Below the pieces are notes generated by a model, which saw only the letters and a list, made by a program, of their open reading frames with translations, made no database searches and was not told where the DNA came from. Positions 1,776 through 19,201 of a stretch of 35,000 nt of DNA are shown one piece after another. This stretch comes from Pelodictyon luteolum DSM 273 (lineage in GTDB: Bacteria > Bacteroidota > Chlorobiia > Chlorobiales > Chlorobiaceae). The number at the start of each line of letters is the position of its first letter. The first letter of the stretch is position 1. The position numbers and the translations under genes were made by a program. The stretch lies in the NCBI RefSeq assembly GCF_000012485.1, contig NC_007512.1, positions 2,032,501-2,067,500 of the forward strand, written 5' to 3'.

Positions 1776-3707
1776 TCACTCGCCAATAAAATCAATCTTC
1801 TTCTCACGCTCAATCTTCACCCGCAGCTCACGGATATCCTGCTCAACCAATTGCTTATGAGGGAGCAGTTCGACTGAATTCATCAAAGGCTTCAGCGACT
1901 CAAAAAAACTCAGCCGCCGATGAAGGACAGGCACCATGCTGCCACTCCATGACCAAGTGTGGGGCTCCAAAGAGAGGCGCCTGAACACTTCAACGTCCTT
2001 GTTCCGCAGAAGAAATCGCCGGACAAATTCGATTCTTCTTTCCGGCTGGAAATGCGCGATGACACGAAACAGGCCTATCATGACCTCCACATTACCGCTG
2101 CGTTCATCAATCACTTTCAACAGGAAATCATCCTGTCGTTCCCGGGCCTCCCCTTTCGACTCCCCATCTTTGATCCCGTGAAGAAAAAAGGCCCTGAGAG
2201 TAAGATCAAGGAGGGCAACATGGTTTTGCTCTGAACGAATTGCATCCGCCAATACCCTGTCCATCATCCACTGATAATCAGGACGCAACCAGATGAAGGA
2301 ATAATCCCTGTGGTCACCAGAATTGCTCATCCTCAAGCGCTCCGCATGCTCATGCATCCACGCGAGATACTCGGAAATAAATTCCGGATCAAGCGTTAGG
2401 AGCAGGTTGAATACCTCACCCTTCTGGTCATGATGGTCCCGCATCCCATCAACTAAAAAGTACGCCAATTTGAGAACATCAAGATCATCAGCAAACAACT
2501 CGGGAAGCCGCTTGACCACAGCCGTAAAGGGATTGAACAACATCTCCAGAATATAAGCGTAGCGCAAATCGAGATTCACCTTCTCAACAACAATGCCCAC
2601 CACTTTAGCAACGACCCGCTCATCGAGAAAACAATACTCAAGCAGATAATCGAACCCATGAGGCAACTCTGATAGCTCCGCGGCGCCATATAGCTCACAG
2701 AGTTGCCGTAGCACCGCCTCATCAAGGTCATCAGGCTTTATCCCCTCATAAGCCCAAAACAACCAGCGCTTTTTGGCAGGATACTCCGGATCTTGAAACA
2801 ACCGAATCACCTTCTTGTACCCCTGCACATCCAGAAGCTTCATCACCAAAGCTCGACCATCCAATTGCAAAGGATCGCCCAACCGGAGATAGCGCCCCAA
2901 CACATCGCCATAAAGAGCAGTGTCCCGACCCGCCAAAACCAGCAAAGCATTCACGACTTCTTGACGCAGCAAAAAGTCGCTATGACCATCCGCAAGTGCA
3001 TCCCTGATTTCACAGCAGCGTTCGAAGAAGACCTCATAATCATCTGCGGAGTATGCATCGGTATATGATTCCAGTCTATTCCTCTTGTGCTCTTCGAACG
3101 CGTCTAACGACTCGTCTGAAGCCATCCGATCTCCCCAAGTCAGCATGAGAACTTCCGCAAGCGCAAATGTCTCATTGCGGAACCTGCCGCGAAGCCGATT
3201 GTGAGCATCGCCGCCATGCGTTTCCAGAAAATCGAGATACTCATGCATCAGGGTGCAGTCCGAATAGCTGGACGGATTAAGGACAGACTCCAGAAAAGGC
3301 CGAACATGCAAAGCATCACCACGAACGACTTCTTTATTCGGCGGCCGAACAGAGTCAACGCAGTATTGGCGGATCGTATCCAAGACAGACGATTGCAGAC
3401 CCTCCTCTTCATAGAGAGAAAAAAGCCTCGTCCAGATTGCCTCTCGCAAGATCGAGAGTTCAGGAGTGGCAGGAAGGCTGAAGTTCGTGAAGTGGAAAGT
3501 TCGATCATCCTTCATCCCGGTATTCTCGAAGTGCATGCCGAGAAAGTGAGCGGCGACAGCCATAAAAACCCTGGCAAAGATGGGCTCCCCACCTTCTGCG
3601 AATCGCCACAGTTCATCCATAACGGTACGCTGAATCTCAAAGCCTCGCCGGTATGACTCCGGCCGGAACCCATAGCCTTCAACGAGCACTTTCAGCACGG
3701 AAGGCAC
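1776..3707 (-). CDS. STAND NTPase C-terminal helical/sensor half (second frame of a split gene)
   Basis: This 643-codon frame opens at GTG 3707, inside the 3' end of the preceding STAND frame (29-nt overlap), with no clear Shine-Dalgarno sequence. The protein is almost entirely alpha-helical and Leu/Asp/Glu-rich, without recognisable catalytic motifs. This is what is expected of the long helical-repeat sensor half of a STAND NTPase. Its first residues (VPSVLKVLVEGYGFRPESY) read as a direct continuation of the end of the upstream frame (LLLRYLEKR). Removing one base in the CCC run at 3716-3718 (minus strand) would fuse the two into a protein of about 1,261 residues. It is most likely the frameshifted 3' half of one gene; a separately translated, coupled subunit is the alternative. 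Confidence 0.75.
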   Translation of the reverse strand: MPSVLKVLVEGYGFRPESYRRGFEIQRTVMDELWRFAEGGEPIFARVFMAVAAHFLGMHFENTGMKDDRTFHFTNFSLPATPELSILREAIWTRLFSLYEEEGLQSSVLDTIRQYCVDSVRPPNKEVVRGDALHVRPFLESVLNPSSYSDCTLMHEYLDFLETHGGDAHNRLRGRFRNETFALAEVLMLTWGDRMASDESLDAFEEHKRNRLESYTDAYSADDYEVFFERCCEIRDALADGHSDFLLRQEVVNALLVLAGRDTALYGDVLGRYLRLGDPLQLDGRALVMKLLDVQGYKKVIRLFQDPEYPAKKRWLFWAYEGIKPDDLDEAVLRQLCELYGAAELSELPHGFDYLLEYCFLDERVVAKVVGIVVEKVNLDLRYAYILEMLFNPFTAVVKRLPELFADDLDVLKLAYFLVDGMRDHHDQKGEVFNLLLTLDPEFISEYLAWMHEHAERLRMSNSGDHRDYSFIWLRPDYQWMMDRVLADAIRSEQNHVALLDLTLRAFFLHGIKDGESKGEARERQDDFLLKVIDERSGNVEVMIGLFRVIAHFQPERRIEFVRRFLLRNKDVEVFRRLSLEPHTWSWSGSMVPVLHRRLSFFESLKPLMNSVELLPHKQLVEQDIRELRVKIEREKKIDFIGE

Positions 3708-5562
3708 TTTCAGCAGGGCGCTTTTCCAGATAACGCAACAGGAGCTGAAGCGCCATCTTCACATTCTCTTCACGCTCAAAAGCCAGCGACCGCAAGACAC
3801 TCAATATCGAGGGAGCAGGCAATGCGCCCGACTCTTTGGCGAAACAGATACTGGTCAGATCTACGGACTCGACCGTCAACGCGCCAATACGGTCACCAAT
3901 CCACAGTAACGTCTCGGTCGGGCGAACAAACCAGAACAGGTCAATCAGCTGAAAAAGCTCCTCCTCACTACCCCTTGATTCCAGTTCAGCCCAAAGGTGC
4001 GCAACATGCGGCCGCATCCGTTCTATAATCCGATCACTATCAAACGCGCTCAAAACAGGATTGATGGAATCAACGATACGGTCCCGCATTCGGGAAAAGA
4101 AGTGACTGAGGAGCGCACCGAAGTCAAGGGCCCCATCCTGGAAAAATGCCCGATAGAAGAGATAGGTCCCGAGCACCTGATCAGACACCCGCACAACCTC
4201 ATCATCATACATATCAAGGATCTCCATCTCATGCAACCGGTCGGCAGCCTCCCAGAAACCTGCCAACGTAATGCCGAACGCCTTTTCGATGGCGAGCATC
4301 ACGTCCTCGTTCGTACGATCCACCGCCTTGAAAAAAGAAACCATAGCGGCAACCCTCAGGAGATCGGCACTTACAGGATCGACACAAATATCTTTCAGAT
4401 CCTCCCGAATTGAGGAAAAGTAGCTATCGTACAGGCTCGACACATCGTGCAGAGAGTCCAAAGGCGCGTCTTTGGACACCGCTGCCGCCATGACGGCCAA
4501 TCGCGGATTACCTTGGGCGACCGCTGCTATGCGCTCTAAATAGTGGAAGTTGACAATCCCATACTCATCCTTGATTAGGGTTTTTATCTCCTCATCGGTG
4601 AACGCCCCCAACTCCAACTCAGAACACATGTCCAAAGGTCGCGCAGCCTCCCGGACCGCTGAAAGCGCATAATCCCTGACCGTTGCCAGCACCTTGAAGC
4701 GCCGGTCATCACGCTGTTCGTGAAGAAGAAGGTCCACCAGGTACTCAAACCGGCTCACCCTATTGGCATCGTCAACCAATATGAGGAAATAGCCGGGCCT
4801 GATGAATCGTACCCGGAGATCCTCCCAAAGATCTCTGCCCCGCCTAACAACACAGTACACCTGATACTCGGGATATGCCTTTCTGAACCGCTCGCATGCC
4901 TCAAGAGCCAGCCTCGACTTTCCGACTCCTGGCCGCCCGGAAAGAACGGTGAGCTCATTGTTTTCCAGCGCATCGAGGACCTGAGGAAGCTCCTGCTCAC
5001 GGAAATGGAAATCCAGATCGAGCCGTGTCGCAAGCTTCCCGCTGTTATAGTAGGCAACGAACTGATCGGGCGAAACGATCTGCCCCGTATCAATAGCAAC
5101 CCCGAGAAAATCACGGGCAAGCCCGGGATACTTGCTGTAGCAATCAAATGCGATCGCATCGATACCGAACAGGTCAAGTTCAACATTCTGCACCCTGCAT
5201 AACTCAGTCACCTCATGGACCTCTCCGGCATCAAGTGTTCCCGCGAAACAATAGACCAAACGACTGATTCGATCAACAGGAACCCCGGTCTTTCGCTCAT
5301 CAAAGCACTTGGCCAGATCATCCTTTATCTTCGCCAGCAGCCCTGCTTGCTGTGTGGTATACTCTGCAAAAACATACGACCCATCTGGCAAGACCATAAG
5401 AGTATCCGGAGTACCCGCCCTGACCTTATTGGCAGCAACGACCGAACCGATCGAATTGATATGCCCATACCCCTTTTCCATGAGATAGGCATCAGCCAGC
5501 TTCTGGAAATCGCCGCCGCTCAGTTCACTGAGAGCTCGCTGTATTTGATTTACCTTTGACAT
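3679..5562 (-). CDS. Restriction-endonuclease-like plus STAND (nSTAND3-type) NTPase, N-terminal half
   Basis: About 627 residues from ATG 5562; TTG at 5568 is also possible, and neither has a good ribosome site. Residues about 15-130 resemble a Mrr/PD-(D/E)xK nuclease fold: FQKLADAYLMEKGYG, then D in GTPDTLMV and E in YVFAEYTTQQ (about 53 and 67), with the usual Lys replaced. A P-loop follows at about 209-216 (GRPGVGKS), Walker B at about 259-265 (FLILVDD), and the ATVRDY sensor/arginine motif of STAND ATPases near 294. The order nuclease-STAND-helical repeats matches Avs-like antiphage sensors, in which ligand binding triggers oligomerisation and DNA cleavage. Here the frame ends shortly after LLLRYLEKR, and the helical half continues in another frame. 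It is either a pseudogene or a naturally split protein. Confidence 0.8.
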   Translation of the reverse strand: MSKVNQIQRALSELSGGDFQKLADAYLMEKGYGHINSIGSVVAANKVRAGTPDTLMVLPDGSYVFAEYTTQQAGLLAKIKDDLAKCFDERKTGVPVDRISRLVYCFAGTLDAGEVHEVTELCRVQNVELDLFGIDAIAFDCYSKYPGLARDFLGVAIDTGQIVSPDQFVAYYNSGKLATRLDLDFHFREQELPQVLDALENNELTVLSGRPGVGKSRLALEACERFRKAYPEYQVYCVVRRGRDLWEDLRVRFIRPGYFLILVDDANRVSRFEYLVDLLLHEQRDDRRFKVLATVRDYALSAVREAARPLDMCSELELGAFTDEEIKTLIKDEYGIVNFHYLERIAAVAQGNPRLAVMAAAVSKDAPLDSLHDVSSLYDSYFSSIREDLKDICVDPVSADLLRVAAMVSFFKAVDRTNEDVMLAIEKAFGITLAGFWEAADRLHEMEILDMYDDEVVRVSDQVLGTYLFYRAFFQDGALDFGALLSHFFSRMRDRIVDSINPVLSAFDSDRIIERMRPHVAHLWAELESRGSEEELFQLIDLFWFVRPTETLLWIGDRIGALTVESVDLTSICFAKESGALPAPSILSVLRSLAFEREENVKMALQLLLRYLEKRPAESAFRAESAR

Positions 5563-5688: not shown

Positions 5689-5762
5689 TTCAAACAAGGC
5701 ACTGCATCAGGGTGACGTTAAACGAATTGCCATCTGCGGGGAAACCGAGCCGGCCGAAAAGC

Positions 5763-7214
5763 CTAAGACTCTTTGCGTATCCCAAAATCATGAACAATGC
5801 GGGCAATCTCATCCTGATCGGATTTAGGTATACTCAGCAAATCCGGCGAGTTCTGGATCTGCCATGCGGCAACCTCGCGACTCACCCGGAAGCGATCAGA
5901 AACAACCCCGATCGTTTCCCTCACCGAACTGCCGGTTTTCAACACCTCGATAGCTGCAGCCTGAGGGAGAAGAAACTCAGCAGCAAAAGCCCTTGCCCTT
6001 TTCTCAAGGATACTGGGCGTCATGCCACCAAGCACCTCCGCCATTGGCAAGCCTCCCTCACGATCCACCAGCAAATGGCAGATTTCATGGGCAAGAGTTG
6101 CCCTCCGGCCGAACCCATGAGCATTACGGCAGGTTGTTGAGGTATTCAATACGACTACGGGGCCATGCATCTCGCCCCAGGCTGCCACAGCATCCAGCGT
6201 ATCGGCTTCAGTCGGAAGCTCGATCTCACGGATCTCGACATTCCAGCCATGCAGGAACGTTTCCGGATCGACCGGTGCATGCCTCACAATCCCCAACGCC
6301 TCACGCAACCAGGTAGCCAATCGATAGCCCTGCTCATACGGCGGCAAATCCGGTTCGGCAACCAAGGCCTCCTTCACCTTCATTGAGAGTGCATCCAGCA
6401 CTGCCGTGTCATGAACGGATGCATTCCGAACCGTCTGGATCAAGGTCGCCTGAACGGCACTGGAATAGACCACTGAAGTCATTCTAGCCACGGCAAGCAG
6501 TTCGGAATCATAGCGATCCTTTGCCTCCCAATACGCCACAGGATCCTGCCCGCCCTCCAGCTCCGCCCGGGCTTCAACATCCAGGCCGCTATTGATTGCG
6601 ATCTTCTTTTCCTCCAGGACCAACTCCCGCTCCCGCCATTTCCGGACTATGGGCTCACACTGTCCTGCGCCCCCTTCATCGACGATACCGACAAGAAGGT
6701 CACCGACCTTGGTCAAGGTATCGAGCAACTCGACAGCAGGAAGCAAGATCGTCCGTTTCAGCAAAGGAACCGACACAAAATAGTCCCTGCCGCTGCGCAT
6801 GATCACGACAGAAGGGAAAAACGCGCCCTTGATCCCCATGGCCAGATCATGGCGAAGAGAAAACGAATAGACCTTGATCTGCTCATCATCAACCAATGTT
6901 TCAGGAAGATCCTGCCAGCGACGCTCGGCCTCCTGCACAAACATTCCGGGATAGAGCGGATTGACCGGGATAGGATAGCGCTGCTCAAGGACCAGCCATG
7001 GCCATGACTCTGCCAGAAACTCCAGCAGATCGAACCAGGACCAGGCAAACGGCACGTCCTCCCCGTTATCCTCATCAGCCCAGACCACCTCATCGCCAAG
7101 AAACAGCATAGCCTCTCCCCATGCCTGCTGCCGGCACTTGGGATTTGATCGGTCAAATCGAAACTCAAAACGCAGCCCATCCGGGGAGCCGATTATGTAT
7201 GTTTCTTCACCCAT
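5763..7214 (-). CDS. ImmA/IrrE-family zinc metallopeptidase with an extra N-terminal domain
   Basis: A 483-residue protein. The C-terminal 180 residues are an ImmA/IrrE (COG2856-type) peptidase: ATLAHEICHLLVD carries the HExxH zinc site at 376-380, and FAAEFLLP near 410-416 supplies the third acidic ligand. The first 150 residues, rich in Trp and acidic residues (WGEAMLFLGDEVVW...WSWFDLLEFL), form a separate domain of unknown role. ImmA-type peptidases usually cleave repressors or antitoxins to switch on phage, ICE or stress genes. The gene starts at ATG 7214, overlapping the end of the upstream gene by 22 nt, so the two are probably translated together. Nearly identical but decayed sequence recurs at 15609-16655. 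The catalytic motifs are intact here. Confidence 0.85.
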   Translation of the reverse strand: MGEETYIIGSPDGLRFEFRFDRSNPKCRQQAWGEAMLFLGDEVVWADEDNGEDVPFAWSWFDLLEFLAESWPWLVLEQRYPIPVNPLYPGMFVQEAERRWQDLPETLVDDEQIKVYSFSLRHDLAMGIKGAFFPSVVIMRSGRDYFVSVPLLKRTILLPAVELLDTLTKVGDLLVGIVDEGGAGQCEPIVRKWRERELVLEEKKIAINSGLDVEARAELEGGQDPVAYWEAKDRYDSELLAVARMTSVVYSSAVQATLIQTVRNASVHDTAVLDALSMKVKEALVAEPDLPPYEQGYRLATWLREALGIVRHAPVDPETFLHGWNVEIREIELPTEADTLDAVAAWGEMHGPVVVLNTSTTCRNAHGFGRRATLAHEICHLLVDREGGLPMAEVLGGMTPSILEKRARAFAAEFLLPQAAAIEVLKTGSSVRETIGVVSDRFRVSREVAAWQIQNSPDLLSIPKSDQDEIARIVHDFGIRKES

Positions 7215-14203: not shown

Positions 14204-14272
14204 TCAGACCCGCTCTGCAGCCCAGCGAAGTACCGAAACCGTTGCAGGAACACCCGTCATGCGTTCACCATT
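14204..14272 (-). pseudogene. Remnant of a second XRE-like/ImmA gene start
   Basis: Reading leftward, this repeats the start of the gene at 1642: ATG 14260, MTGVPATVSVLRWAAERV, then an immediate TGA at 14206-14204. Similarity to the first copy extends about 12 bases upstream of the ATG (GTGAACGC) and stops at the end of the eighteenth codon. It is only a fragment and shows that the XRE/ImmA locus was once duplicated here. Confidence 0.8.
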
Positions 14273-14401
14273 GATTTTCAGTCACTCGCAAATGAGGTTA
14301 ATGTGGCGAAGTCAGGAAAATTCGGTCGATAGTGCAGCAGCAAATGAAAAAGGCCTCGCACAACAGCAAAGCCTCTCACAGGATCAAGCGGGCAGCCAGC
14401 A

Positions 14402-15602: not shown

Positions 15603-15608
15603 AAAAGC

Positions 15609-16655
15609 CTACGACTCTTTGCGTATAAACAAATCACGGACAATCCGGGCGATCTCATCCTGATCGGATTTAGGCATGCTCAGCAAATCCGGCAAGTTCT
15701 GGATCTGCCATGCAGCAACCTCGCGACTCACCCGGAAGCGATCAGAAACGACCCCGATCGTTTCCCTCACCGAACTGCCGGCTTTCAACACCTCGATAGC
15801 TGCAGCCTGAGGGAGAAGAAACTCGGCAGCAAAAGCCCTTGCCCTTTTCTCAAGGATACTGGGCGTCATGCCGCCAAGCACCTCCGCCATTGGCAAGCCT
15901 CCCTCACGATCCACCAGCAAATGGCAGATTTCATGGGCAAGAGTTGCCCTCCGGCCGAACCCATGAGCATTACGGGAGGTTGTTGAGGTATTCAATACGA
16001 CTACGGGGCCATGCATCTCGCCCCAGGCTGCCACGGCATCCAGCGTATCGGCTTCAGTCGGAAGCTCGATCTCACGGATCTCGACATTCCAGCCATGCAG
16101 CAACGTTTCCGGATCGACCGGTGCATGCCGCACAACCCCCAACGCCTCACGCAACCAGGTAGCCAATCGATAGCCTTGCTCATACGGCGGCAAATCCGGT
16201 TCGGAAACCAAGGCCTCCTTCACCTTCATTGAGAGCGCATCCAGCACTGCCGTGTCATGAACGGATGCATTCCGAACCGTCTGGATCAAGGTCGCCTGAA
16301 CGGCACTGGAATAGACCACTGAAGTCATTCTAGCCACGGCAAGCAGTTCGGAATCATAGCGGCCCTCCGCCTCCCAATACGCCAGAGGATCCTGCCCGCC
16401 CTCCAGCTCCGCCCGGGCTTCAACATCCAGGCCGCTATTGATTGCGATCTTCTTTTCCTCCAGGACCAACTCCCGCTCCCGCCATTTCCGGACAATGGGC
16501 TCACACTATCCTGCGCCCCCTTCATCGACGATACCGACAAAAAGGTCACCGACCTTGGTCAAGGTATCGAGCAACTCGACAGCAGGAAGCAAGATCGTCC
16601 GTTTAGGCAAGGGTTGGTCAGCGTCCCATTTCTCAACGATATGCGTCCCCTTTTT
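15609..16655 (-). pseudogene. Second ImmA/IrrE peptidase copy, 5'-truncated with a nonsense codon
   Basis: The last 286 codons (from 16469) are almost identical to the peptidase at 5763-7214, including ATLAHEICHLLVD and FAAEFLLP. Upstream, the same frame carries a TAG at 16508-16506 where the intact copy has CAG (Gln in GAGQCEP). Beyond the stop the frame still matches the intact gene up to KRTILLPAVELL (about 16604), and then continues as different but protein-like sequence (GTHIVEKWDADQPLPKR). The N-terminal domain is missing because the divergent toxin promoter begins near 16660. Translation could restart internally, giving a bare peptidase domain, but it is most likely a decayed paralogue. 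Its small partner gene is absent. Confidence 0.85.
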
Positions 16656-17624: not shown

Positions 17625-18873
17625 TTATAAGCGTAATGCATGGTACAGGTCATCATGCTCAAAAGCGCTCTCCATGCGCCTGAATTCGGCTGGCCGGGCA
17701 CAAACAGCTTTTGCAACATCACGCCAGGTCTTTGTAGCATGAGCCACTTCGGAAATCATACGATCTGCCGCCGCCATCTGCAATCCGAAGAGAGGAGCAA
17801 CCTCCCGGACCAGCTCGATTGAGCAGGTTCCATCCTCATAGTTGATCGCGGTTGTCAGAACTCTTGGTTTCAGCTCCTGAGGCGTCGGGTTGAGATCGTA
17901 CACCGGAGACAACCTCCAGCCATGCCTGCCCAACATCAGAAAACCGTGGTTGCGCAGATGATCATCAACATTTGAGATCAACACATTGAAAACCATGCGC
18001 CGAAACAACTCGGCACGATCCTCCTTGGCCTGCACACCGGCTTGCCCGAGCGCATCAACGATATCCAGATAGCTTCCCCCCCTGGCCATCCAACGATCCG
18101 GTCATAGACATTGCAGACATGAATGGAACACGTCCTTCCTGATTTCGATCAAAACGGCGGGAAAGAAGGACTGCCTTATCCGCAACCATTACCAAATCAT
18201 GCTCAGGTGTTCGTATCCCGGCTTTTTCAGCGAGTCTCAGAGCAATCTCTTCCCAGGATTCGATGCTGTATTCATCGTTCTCCTTTGGAAACTTGGCTAT
18301 CGCAAGATGACCATACTGATCAATCACCGAAGCCTTCGGGCGAGCGCCTCCAAGTGAAGAGCCCGGAGCAAAAATCATCCGCAGATCTTCATCGCTCTCT
18401 TCATCACGAAAAATCCGCTCGCTCACACCCAACAATTTCCCAAGATCAACGAGCCTGGGCACCCCACTCTCTTTCGGTGACTGGAAAACCTCCTCTCCGG
18501 TGTACTTGAAGCGAAGGGCGCCCTGCCGAGTCTCATCTGCAACTCCCAGCAGATAGTCCGTTTCAAACAATGTACGCGGTGTCCGCCGCTCTTTTTCAGC
18601 ACAGCGACGCTCAGCACGACGCATAAGACGCCGTCCCCATTGATCGGGAGCCGAATCACCCAATGTTCCGAACATCTCCTGCCCGGGCAGTGGAACAAAA
18701 ACACCTCGTCCCACCTTGAGTGAGGCGTCAATTGAGAAATGATCGACCGCCTCAATCCATCCATTATCATACTGAAATGAAACCGTCTCACGCCCACGTC
18801 CGCTTTGAGGGAAAAGACGGCCGATCAATCGGCATGTTCCTTGCCAATCCAGAAACACTTCGATATCAGGCAT
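17625..18873 (-). pseudogene. hipA: HipA-type kinase toxin, frameshifted in a G7 tract
   Basis: The first frame (ATG 18873, with GGAG 6 nt upstream inside hipB) covers the N-terminal domain and the nucleotide-binding part: SSLGGARPK at 172-180, then FPKEND, IESWEEIALRLAEKAGI and VLLSRRFDR. After SMTGSLDGQ a run of seven G (C7 at 18076-18082 on the plus strand) shifts the frame, which ends at 18055. The other frame continues as GGSYLDIVDALGQAG and contains the catalytic part (FNVLISNVDDHLRNHGF, SPVYDLNPT) up to 17625. With six G the protein would be 415 residues, a normal HipA length. HipA phosphorylates glutamyl-tRNA synthetase in E. coli. As sequenced, the kinase active site is lost, unless slippage at the G-tract restores it. 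Confidence 0.88.
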
Positions 18874-19201
18874 TGCCGTCTCCATGTTTCTGGCCAGTAA
18901 TGCGGGCCCGCTTCGGCAACCCAGCCGACACAAGTTGTTGCCCCACGCTATCGAGTGCGGGATCTGCAAGCCTGGGAAGATCATCCAGCAGCCCAAGAGC
19001 CTGAAGCACCGCTGCATAAATACCGATACTCACTGAAGGATCGCCCTTCTCAAGACGCGAGAGGGTTGGCCTGGAGGTCGCAGCGCGCTCTGCAACAACA
19101 CTCATAGGGAGCTTGCGGCGCACCCGCGCTTCGTGAATATTGGCTCCTAACTTGCGCAGCACTTTTCGAACTGCAGGCGATGGAAAATGAGGTGTAGGCA
19201 T
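18866..19201 (-). CDS. hipB: HipB-type antitoxin/repressor
   Basis: 111 residues from ATG 19201. It has an XRE helix-turn-helix at about residues 33-65 (MSVVAERAATSRPTLSRLEKG) followed by SVSIGIYAAVLQALGL, the standard HipB arrangement, preceded by a basic segment. It normally binds and inhibits HipA and represses the operon. Its stop at 18866 overlaps the hipA start at 18873, so the two are coupled. A palindrome 33 bp upstream of the start is the likely operator. With hipA frameshifted it may persist as an orphan repressor. Confidence 0.85.
   Translation of the reverse strand: MPTPHFPSPAVRKVLRKLGANIHEARVRRKLPMSVVAERAATSRPTLSRLEKGDPSVSIGIYAAVLQALGLLDDLPRLADPALDSVGQQLVSAGLPKRARITGQKHGDGNA

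What the first reader, a model, noticed from the sequence alone, without database searches (positions are those of the whole stretch)
1776..5562. Nuclease-STAND NTPase split at the NTPase/sensor boundary
Two overlapping leftward frames together read as one 1,261-residue protein with a Mrr-like nuclease, STAND ATPase and helical sensor, the Avs-like architecture. One extra base in CCC (3716-3718, plus-strand GGG) explains the break. It lies beside a 12-bp direct repeat (3686-3697, 3704-3715). Either the gene is broken, or sensor and effector are separate coupled subunits, which would be unusual.
Basis: partly seen in the sequence, partly recalled or inferred. Interest (0 to 1): 0.65.

Follow-up and report, generated by a model that had tools for sequence, protein, structure and literature searches.

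The report
Frameshifted bacterial immune-receptor gene
A bacterial gene for a large three-part immune-sensor protein has been cut in two by a single small frameshift; relatives carry the same protein whole at this point, so this is most likely an ordinary, recently broken gene and not a new two-subunit system.

Summary
Two overlapping minus-strand frames (627 and 643 aa, offset +1) join without a gap into a 1,261-residue protein. About 40 homologues from many phyla were examined: 37 are one frame of 1,193-1,286 aa, and none is split at this point. The exceptions break elsewhere: in-frame stops in a Gammaproteobacteria MAG, a frame that ends near a contig end, and a 'Ureaplasma' whose split is only its TGA code. 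Best explanation: a recent +1 frameshift (less likely a sequence error) in an Avs-like STAND receptor. Both halves are otherwise free of stops, and the C half has not evolved unusually fast. The gene sits in a decaying island with a frameshift-split hipA, an IS-truncated gene and a truncated duplicate. No dedicated PADLOC, Pfam or NCBIfam model was found for the whole protein; that intact family is the more interesting part.

The parts
3679..5562 (-). N-terminal part of the broken gene: predicted PD-(D/E)XK-like domain (residues 1-~155), STAND NTPase with winged helix (~160-~480), first helices of the solenoid (~480-614), then a short out-of-frame tail to TGA
1776..3707 (-). C-terminal part of the broken gene: HEAT-like alpha-solenoid, presumed sensor; open from GTG 3707
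3704..3715 (-). best-supported interval of the +1 frameshift; homologues keep K-R-P-x-E, which the window reads in the upstream frame down to about 3709
3716..3718 (+).
3686..3697 (+). first copy of a 12-bp direct repeat (GCACTTTCAGCA)
3704..3715 (+). second copy of the 12-bp direct repeat, 18 bp away
4918..4944 (-). Walker A region, residues 207-215 LSGRPGVGK, of the STAND NTPase (G212, G214 and K215 invariant in 38 sequences)
4762..4773 (-). Walker B-like DDAN, residues 264-267 (D264, D265 and N267 invariant)

Best explanation
This is a recently inactivated copy of a single-gene STAND (NLR-like) immune receptor. The intact family protein of about 1,240 residues has an N-terminal effector-like alpha/beta domain, an nSTAND3-type NTPase switch and a C-terminal HEAT-like solenoid. 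By analogy with Avs proteins, the solenoid would bind an invader protein, the NTPase would oligomerise, and the N-terminal domain would then attack nucleic acid or otherwise stop the infected cell. In this genome a +1 frameshift within the solenoid (best placed at 3704-3715) ends translation at TGA 3681-3679, leaving effector plus NTPase without most of the sensor; the remaining sensor could only be made by reinitiation. The frameshift and the intact homologues are shown. Loss of function and the Avs-like mechanism are inferred.
For: 37 homologues are single frames of 1,193-1,286 aa and align through the junction without a gap when one base is skipped; the incomplete ones that reach this point are also in one frame across it. 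No free-standing C half was found in 394 genomes of the phylum, apart from a fragment with several stops. The genome has no second copy, and sampled congeners lack the gene apart from two distant STAND paralogues. Another family member is broken at other sites: L023 has in-frame TAG at codon 525 and TGA at 1211. Recency: no other stop in 3,786 nt bounds neutral divergence since the break at about 0.02 substitutions per site, and the window's terminal-branch C/N ratio (1.78) lies within the intact homologues' range of 1.31-2.45. Decaying surroundings: hipA at 17625-19017 is split by a frameshift at a run of seven G; the gene at 914-1642 is cut by an IS3-type element; 5757-6758 has a 96.7% identical truncated copy at 15603-16604. 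Fold matches: Avs3, Avs4, Avs5.
Against: A sequence error cannot be excluded; no second assembly of this strain was available. Both halves are otherwise intact, so residual function of the N-terminal half, or of a reinitiated two-part protein, is not excluded: GTG codons in the downstream frame lie at 3707, 3698 and 3689, close to the upstream stop. No phage-defence activity has been shown for any member.
Confidence: 0.8

Rival explanations
1. Sequence error: the gene is intact in the organism and the recorded sequence has one base too many.
For: No other lesion in 1,261 codons and no relaxed evolution of the C half; a single-base event; a second frameshift in the same window at a G7 run (hipA) also fits a homopolymer error.
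Against: The break here is not in a long homopolymer (AAA and CCC only). The genome is a single contig. The neighbourhood has lesions that are not single-base errors: an IS insertion and a truncated duplicate.
Confidence: 0.13
2. Effector-NTPase and sensor are two separate, coupled subunits made by reinitiation at a GTG in the overlap.
For: 29-bp overlap with GTG codons near the upstream stop; both halves remain open and the C half is not evolving faster than in intact relatives.
Against: No relative is split here. The break cuts through a helical solenoid rather than between domains. No good ribosome-binding sequence was seen by eye, only a distant GGAAAAG. The out-of-frame tail of the upstream frame fits the family profile worse than the downstream frame does.
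Confidence: 0.04
3. Programmed +1 ribosomal frameshifting or transcriptional slippage makes the full-length protein.
For: The required shift is exactly +1 and the overlap is short.
Against: No conserved shift site in homologues, which are unsplit here. The last sense codon and stop, CGU UGA, would re-pair badly as GUU (unlike CUU UGA in prfB), and runs of 3-4 A are too short for known polymerase slippage (general knowledge; sequence).
Confidence: 0.03

Closest known systems
Avs (AVAST) STAND antiviral proteins, Avs3, Avs4 and Avs5
   Same: N-terminal effector, STAND NTPase and C-terminal helical sensor in one chain; best Foldseek matches of the N half are 8dgc (Avs3), 8dgf (Avs4) and 9jap (EfAvs5); Avs5 also carries an nSTAND3 NTPase (PMC12931631)
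   Different: Shorter (about 1,240 aa); no hit of the window protein to PADLOC Avs models; no match above cut-off to NCBIfam Avs4 NF041815; different N-terminal domain; broken in this genome
Pfam PF20720 nSTAND3
   Same: All 33 family members scanned match it (best 7.2e-15); window protein 24.9 bits over residues 190-305
   Different: The window protein alone falls just below the curated cut-off of 27.2 bits
Mrr-type restriction endonuclease domain (PF04471)
   Same: Compatible predicted order of helices and strands, with an acidic G-x-P-D motif before an E-x-T strand
   Different: No Pfam match; hhalign probability 0.4%; the lysine of (D/E)-x-K is Thr, Ser or Gly in all 38 sequences, though K78 further on is invariant
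Large Leptospira plasmid proteins such as WP_017857409.1 (hypothetical protein)
   Same: Full-length unsplit homologues of 1,242-1,244 aa
   Different: About 30% identity over the N half; C half too diverged for tblastn with the window's C half

Membership tests
Avs (AVAST) antiviral STAND family | Effector domain + STAND NTPase + C-terminal helical sensor in one polypeptide | tested here: met
   Met by the intact homologues and by the joined reading, with the effector role of the N-terminal domain only predicted; not met by the window's gene as it stands, which is split
Avs (AVAST) antiviral STAND family | Match to a curated Avs model | tested here: not met
   No Avs hit for the window protein in PADLOC; of 33 members only one hits PADLOC Avs4 (E 2e-4) and two hit NCBIfam Avs4 weakly
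Avs (AVAST) antiviral STAND family | Direct recognition of a conserved phage protein (terminase, portal) | not testable with these tools
   Needs experiment
STAND NTPase (nSTAND3) | Walker A, Walker B and winged-helix arrangement of STAND NTPases | tested here: met
   G212, G214, K215, D264, D265, N267, R296 invariant; fold matches to NLRs, CED-4 and EfAvs5 over residues 157-515 with Z about 13-16
STAND NTPase (nSTAND3) | Score above the Pfam nSTAND3 cut-off | tested here: inconclusive
   Window 24.9 bits against 27.2; all 33 members match at E up to 0.01, best 7.2e-15
Mrr-like nuclease | Match to Mrr_cat PF04471 | tested here: not met
   No hit in Pfam for 22 members; hhalign probability 0.4%
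PD-(D/E)XK nuclease fold | D...(D/E)-x-K catalytic motif on the core strands | tested here: inconclusive
   D53 in 38/38, E67 in 25/38, Lys absent at the third position, K78 in 38/38; predicted topology is compatible

The most novel reading that the evidence does not exclude
The two frames are translated as separate effector-NTPase and sensor polypeptides that reassemble: a bipartite NLR-like receptor created by a frameshift.
Probability: 0.04. Interest if true: 0.6.

Novelty: new member of a known kind. Interest (0 to 1): 0.2.

Why it matters
As a broken gene it matters little beyond annotation: the locus should be recorded as one frameshifted gene, or resequenced, and not as two genes. The by-product is more useful: a coherent, widespread family of about 1,240-residue STAND receptors in which an nSTAND3 NTPase and a HEAT-like solenoid carry an unassigned N-terminal domain. 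None of PADLOC, Pfam and NCBIfam, as searched here, has a model for the whole protein, so it is a clean candidate for testing as another Avs-like type. Breakage of other members at other sites would fit a costly, dispensable immune gene.

Tried and rejected
Looked for a natural split among relatives: L023 (Gammaproteobacteria MAG) is interrupted by in-frame stops at codons 525 and 1211; L050 ('Ureaplasma' MAG) is open under code 4; L027 (Anaerolineae MAG) ends at query residue 1008, close to its contig end. None supports a conserved split. Looked for phage-borne relatives: none among 50,697 phage records, two in IMG/VR contigs. Looked for an intact paralogue in the same genome: none. Looked for a conserved partner gene next to homologues: none is general; some members lie beside type I restriction-modification genes and one beside a Fic gene. 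Searched the N-terminal domain against solved-structure sequences by profile: only chance-level hits. Promoter and terminator scans were at shuffle level. No paper found names this architecture. The 37 aligned members were chosen as frames of at least 1,150 aa, so '37 whole' is to be read with the list of exceptions, not as a rate.

Full report
OBSERVATION. The two minus-strand frames are there. 3679-5562 encodes 627 aa from ATG; 1776-3707 encodes 643 aa from GTG; they overlap by 29 bp and differ by +1. Skipping one base gives 1,261 aa. The 12-bp direct repeat is real and unusual for this window, but its 18-bp period keeps the frame, so simple repeat gain or loss would not cause the shift. The window lies in a 2,364,842-bp single-contig genome. 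From memory that is the size of Chlorobium (Pelodictyon) luteolum DSM 273; this identity was not tested.

HOMOLOGUES ARE WHOLE AT THIS POINT. The N half found four relatives in 150 related genomes, all in open frames of 1,233-1,261 aa, and the C half independently found the same four frames. Plasmid, genome and viral collections added Leptospira plasmids and about 35 further members: Microcoleus, Nitrosospira, Nitrosovibrio, Sulfuricurvum, Clostridium, Paenibacillus, Flavobacterium, Methanobrevibacter and others. Thirty-seven members with frames of 1,193-1,286 aa were aligned with the joined window protein; all are continuous through the junction without a gap there. These 37 were selected for length, so the exceptions count: L023, L027 and L050, plus contigs that end early (L047, L053). 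None of them breaks at the window's break point. A search of 394 genomes of the phylum found no separate intact C half, only one stop-riddled fragment.

EXCEPTIONS. L023 has in-frame stops at codons 525 and 1211; L050 is open under the Mycoplasma code; L027 ends near its contig end. So other members do get broken, at other places.

WHERE THE SHIFT IS. Homologues keep a K-R-P-x-E-like sequence at this helix (P in 28 of 38 sequences). The window reads K-R-P-A-E in the upstream frame and P-S-V-L-K-V in the downstream frame. Scored against a profile built without the window, a shift in 3707-3715 gives about 1182 bits, at CCC 3716-3718 1177.7, and further away less. The difference is modest, but it moves the likely site into the second repeat copy. 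Structure predictions place the break between helices 598-614 and 618-626, inside a run of helices that starts near residue 480, about 100 residues beyond the STAND core matched at 157-515. It is therefore not at the NTPase/sensor boundary.

AGE. No further stop in 3,786 nt bounds neutral change since the break at about 0.02 substitutions per site. On a tree fixed to the N-half topology the window's C/N branch ratio is 1.78, within the range 1.31-2.45 of intact members. The break is therefore recent, or an error in the sequence, or the halves are still under selection.

SETTING. The same 35 kb shows other damage. hipA is split by a frameshift at a G7 run (17625-19017; HipA_C model positions 1-89 and 98-213 lie in different frames). 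A gene at 914-1642 is truncated by an IS3-type transposon. 15603-16604 is a 96.7% identical truncated copy of 5757-6758. An IS21-type pair is present. This looks like a decaying mobile or defence island, which favours real gene decay.

WHAT THE INTACT PROTEIN IS. The NTPase is a STAND ATPase: all 33 members scanned match nSTAND3, and the N-half model matches Avs3, Avs4 and Avs5 first, then NLRC4, Apaf-1 and plant NLRs. The C half is a HEAT-like alpha-solenoid with only generic matches. The N-terminal domain has a helix/strand order compatible with a PD-(D/E)XK nuclease, with invariant D53 and K78, but E-x-T replaces E-x-K, E67 is missing in 13 of 38, and there is no Mrr match. 'Nuclease' is thus a prediction. 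Function as an Avs-like abortive-infection receptor is inferred by analogy (PMC12931631). The window protein does not match any curated Avs model.

VERDICT. An ordinary, probably recently frameshifted member of an uncharacterised branch of Avs-like STAND receptors. Residual two-part function is not excluded, but nothing supports it.

Noticed in passing
17625-19017 (-): hipA-like gene split by a frameshift at a run of seven G; the HipA_C domain is divided between two frames.
   Followed up: partly
5757-6758 and 15603-16604: The 3' two thirds of an IrrE/M78-peptidase gene (5763-7214) recurs 10 kb away, 96.7% identical, as a truncated copy.
   Followed up: partly
358-1642: An IS3-family transposase (358-1098) abuts and appears to truncate the leftward gene 914-1642; 70 bp of that gene's start (1589-1658) recur at 14207-14276.
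   Followed up: partly
L011:2858-6877 (-): About 8-12 kb upstream of the window start lies another large (1,339 aa) protein with a P-loop (LLGEPGAGKSS) and no Pfam match, possibly a second STAND-like receptor.
   Followed up: no
L012, L013 (Leptospira plasmids): Full-length homologues of 1,242-1,244 aa are carried on Leptospira interrogans and L. noguchii plasmids, annotated only as hypothetical proteins.
   Followed up: partly
L029, L041, L046, L054, L055: Several homologues lie beside genes that cluster with type I restriction-modification proteins (HsdR, HsdM and HsdS identified by Pfam in L029 and L041).
   Followed up: partly
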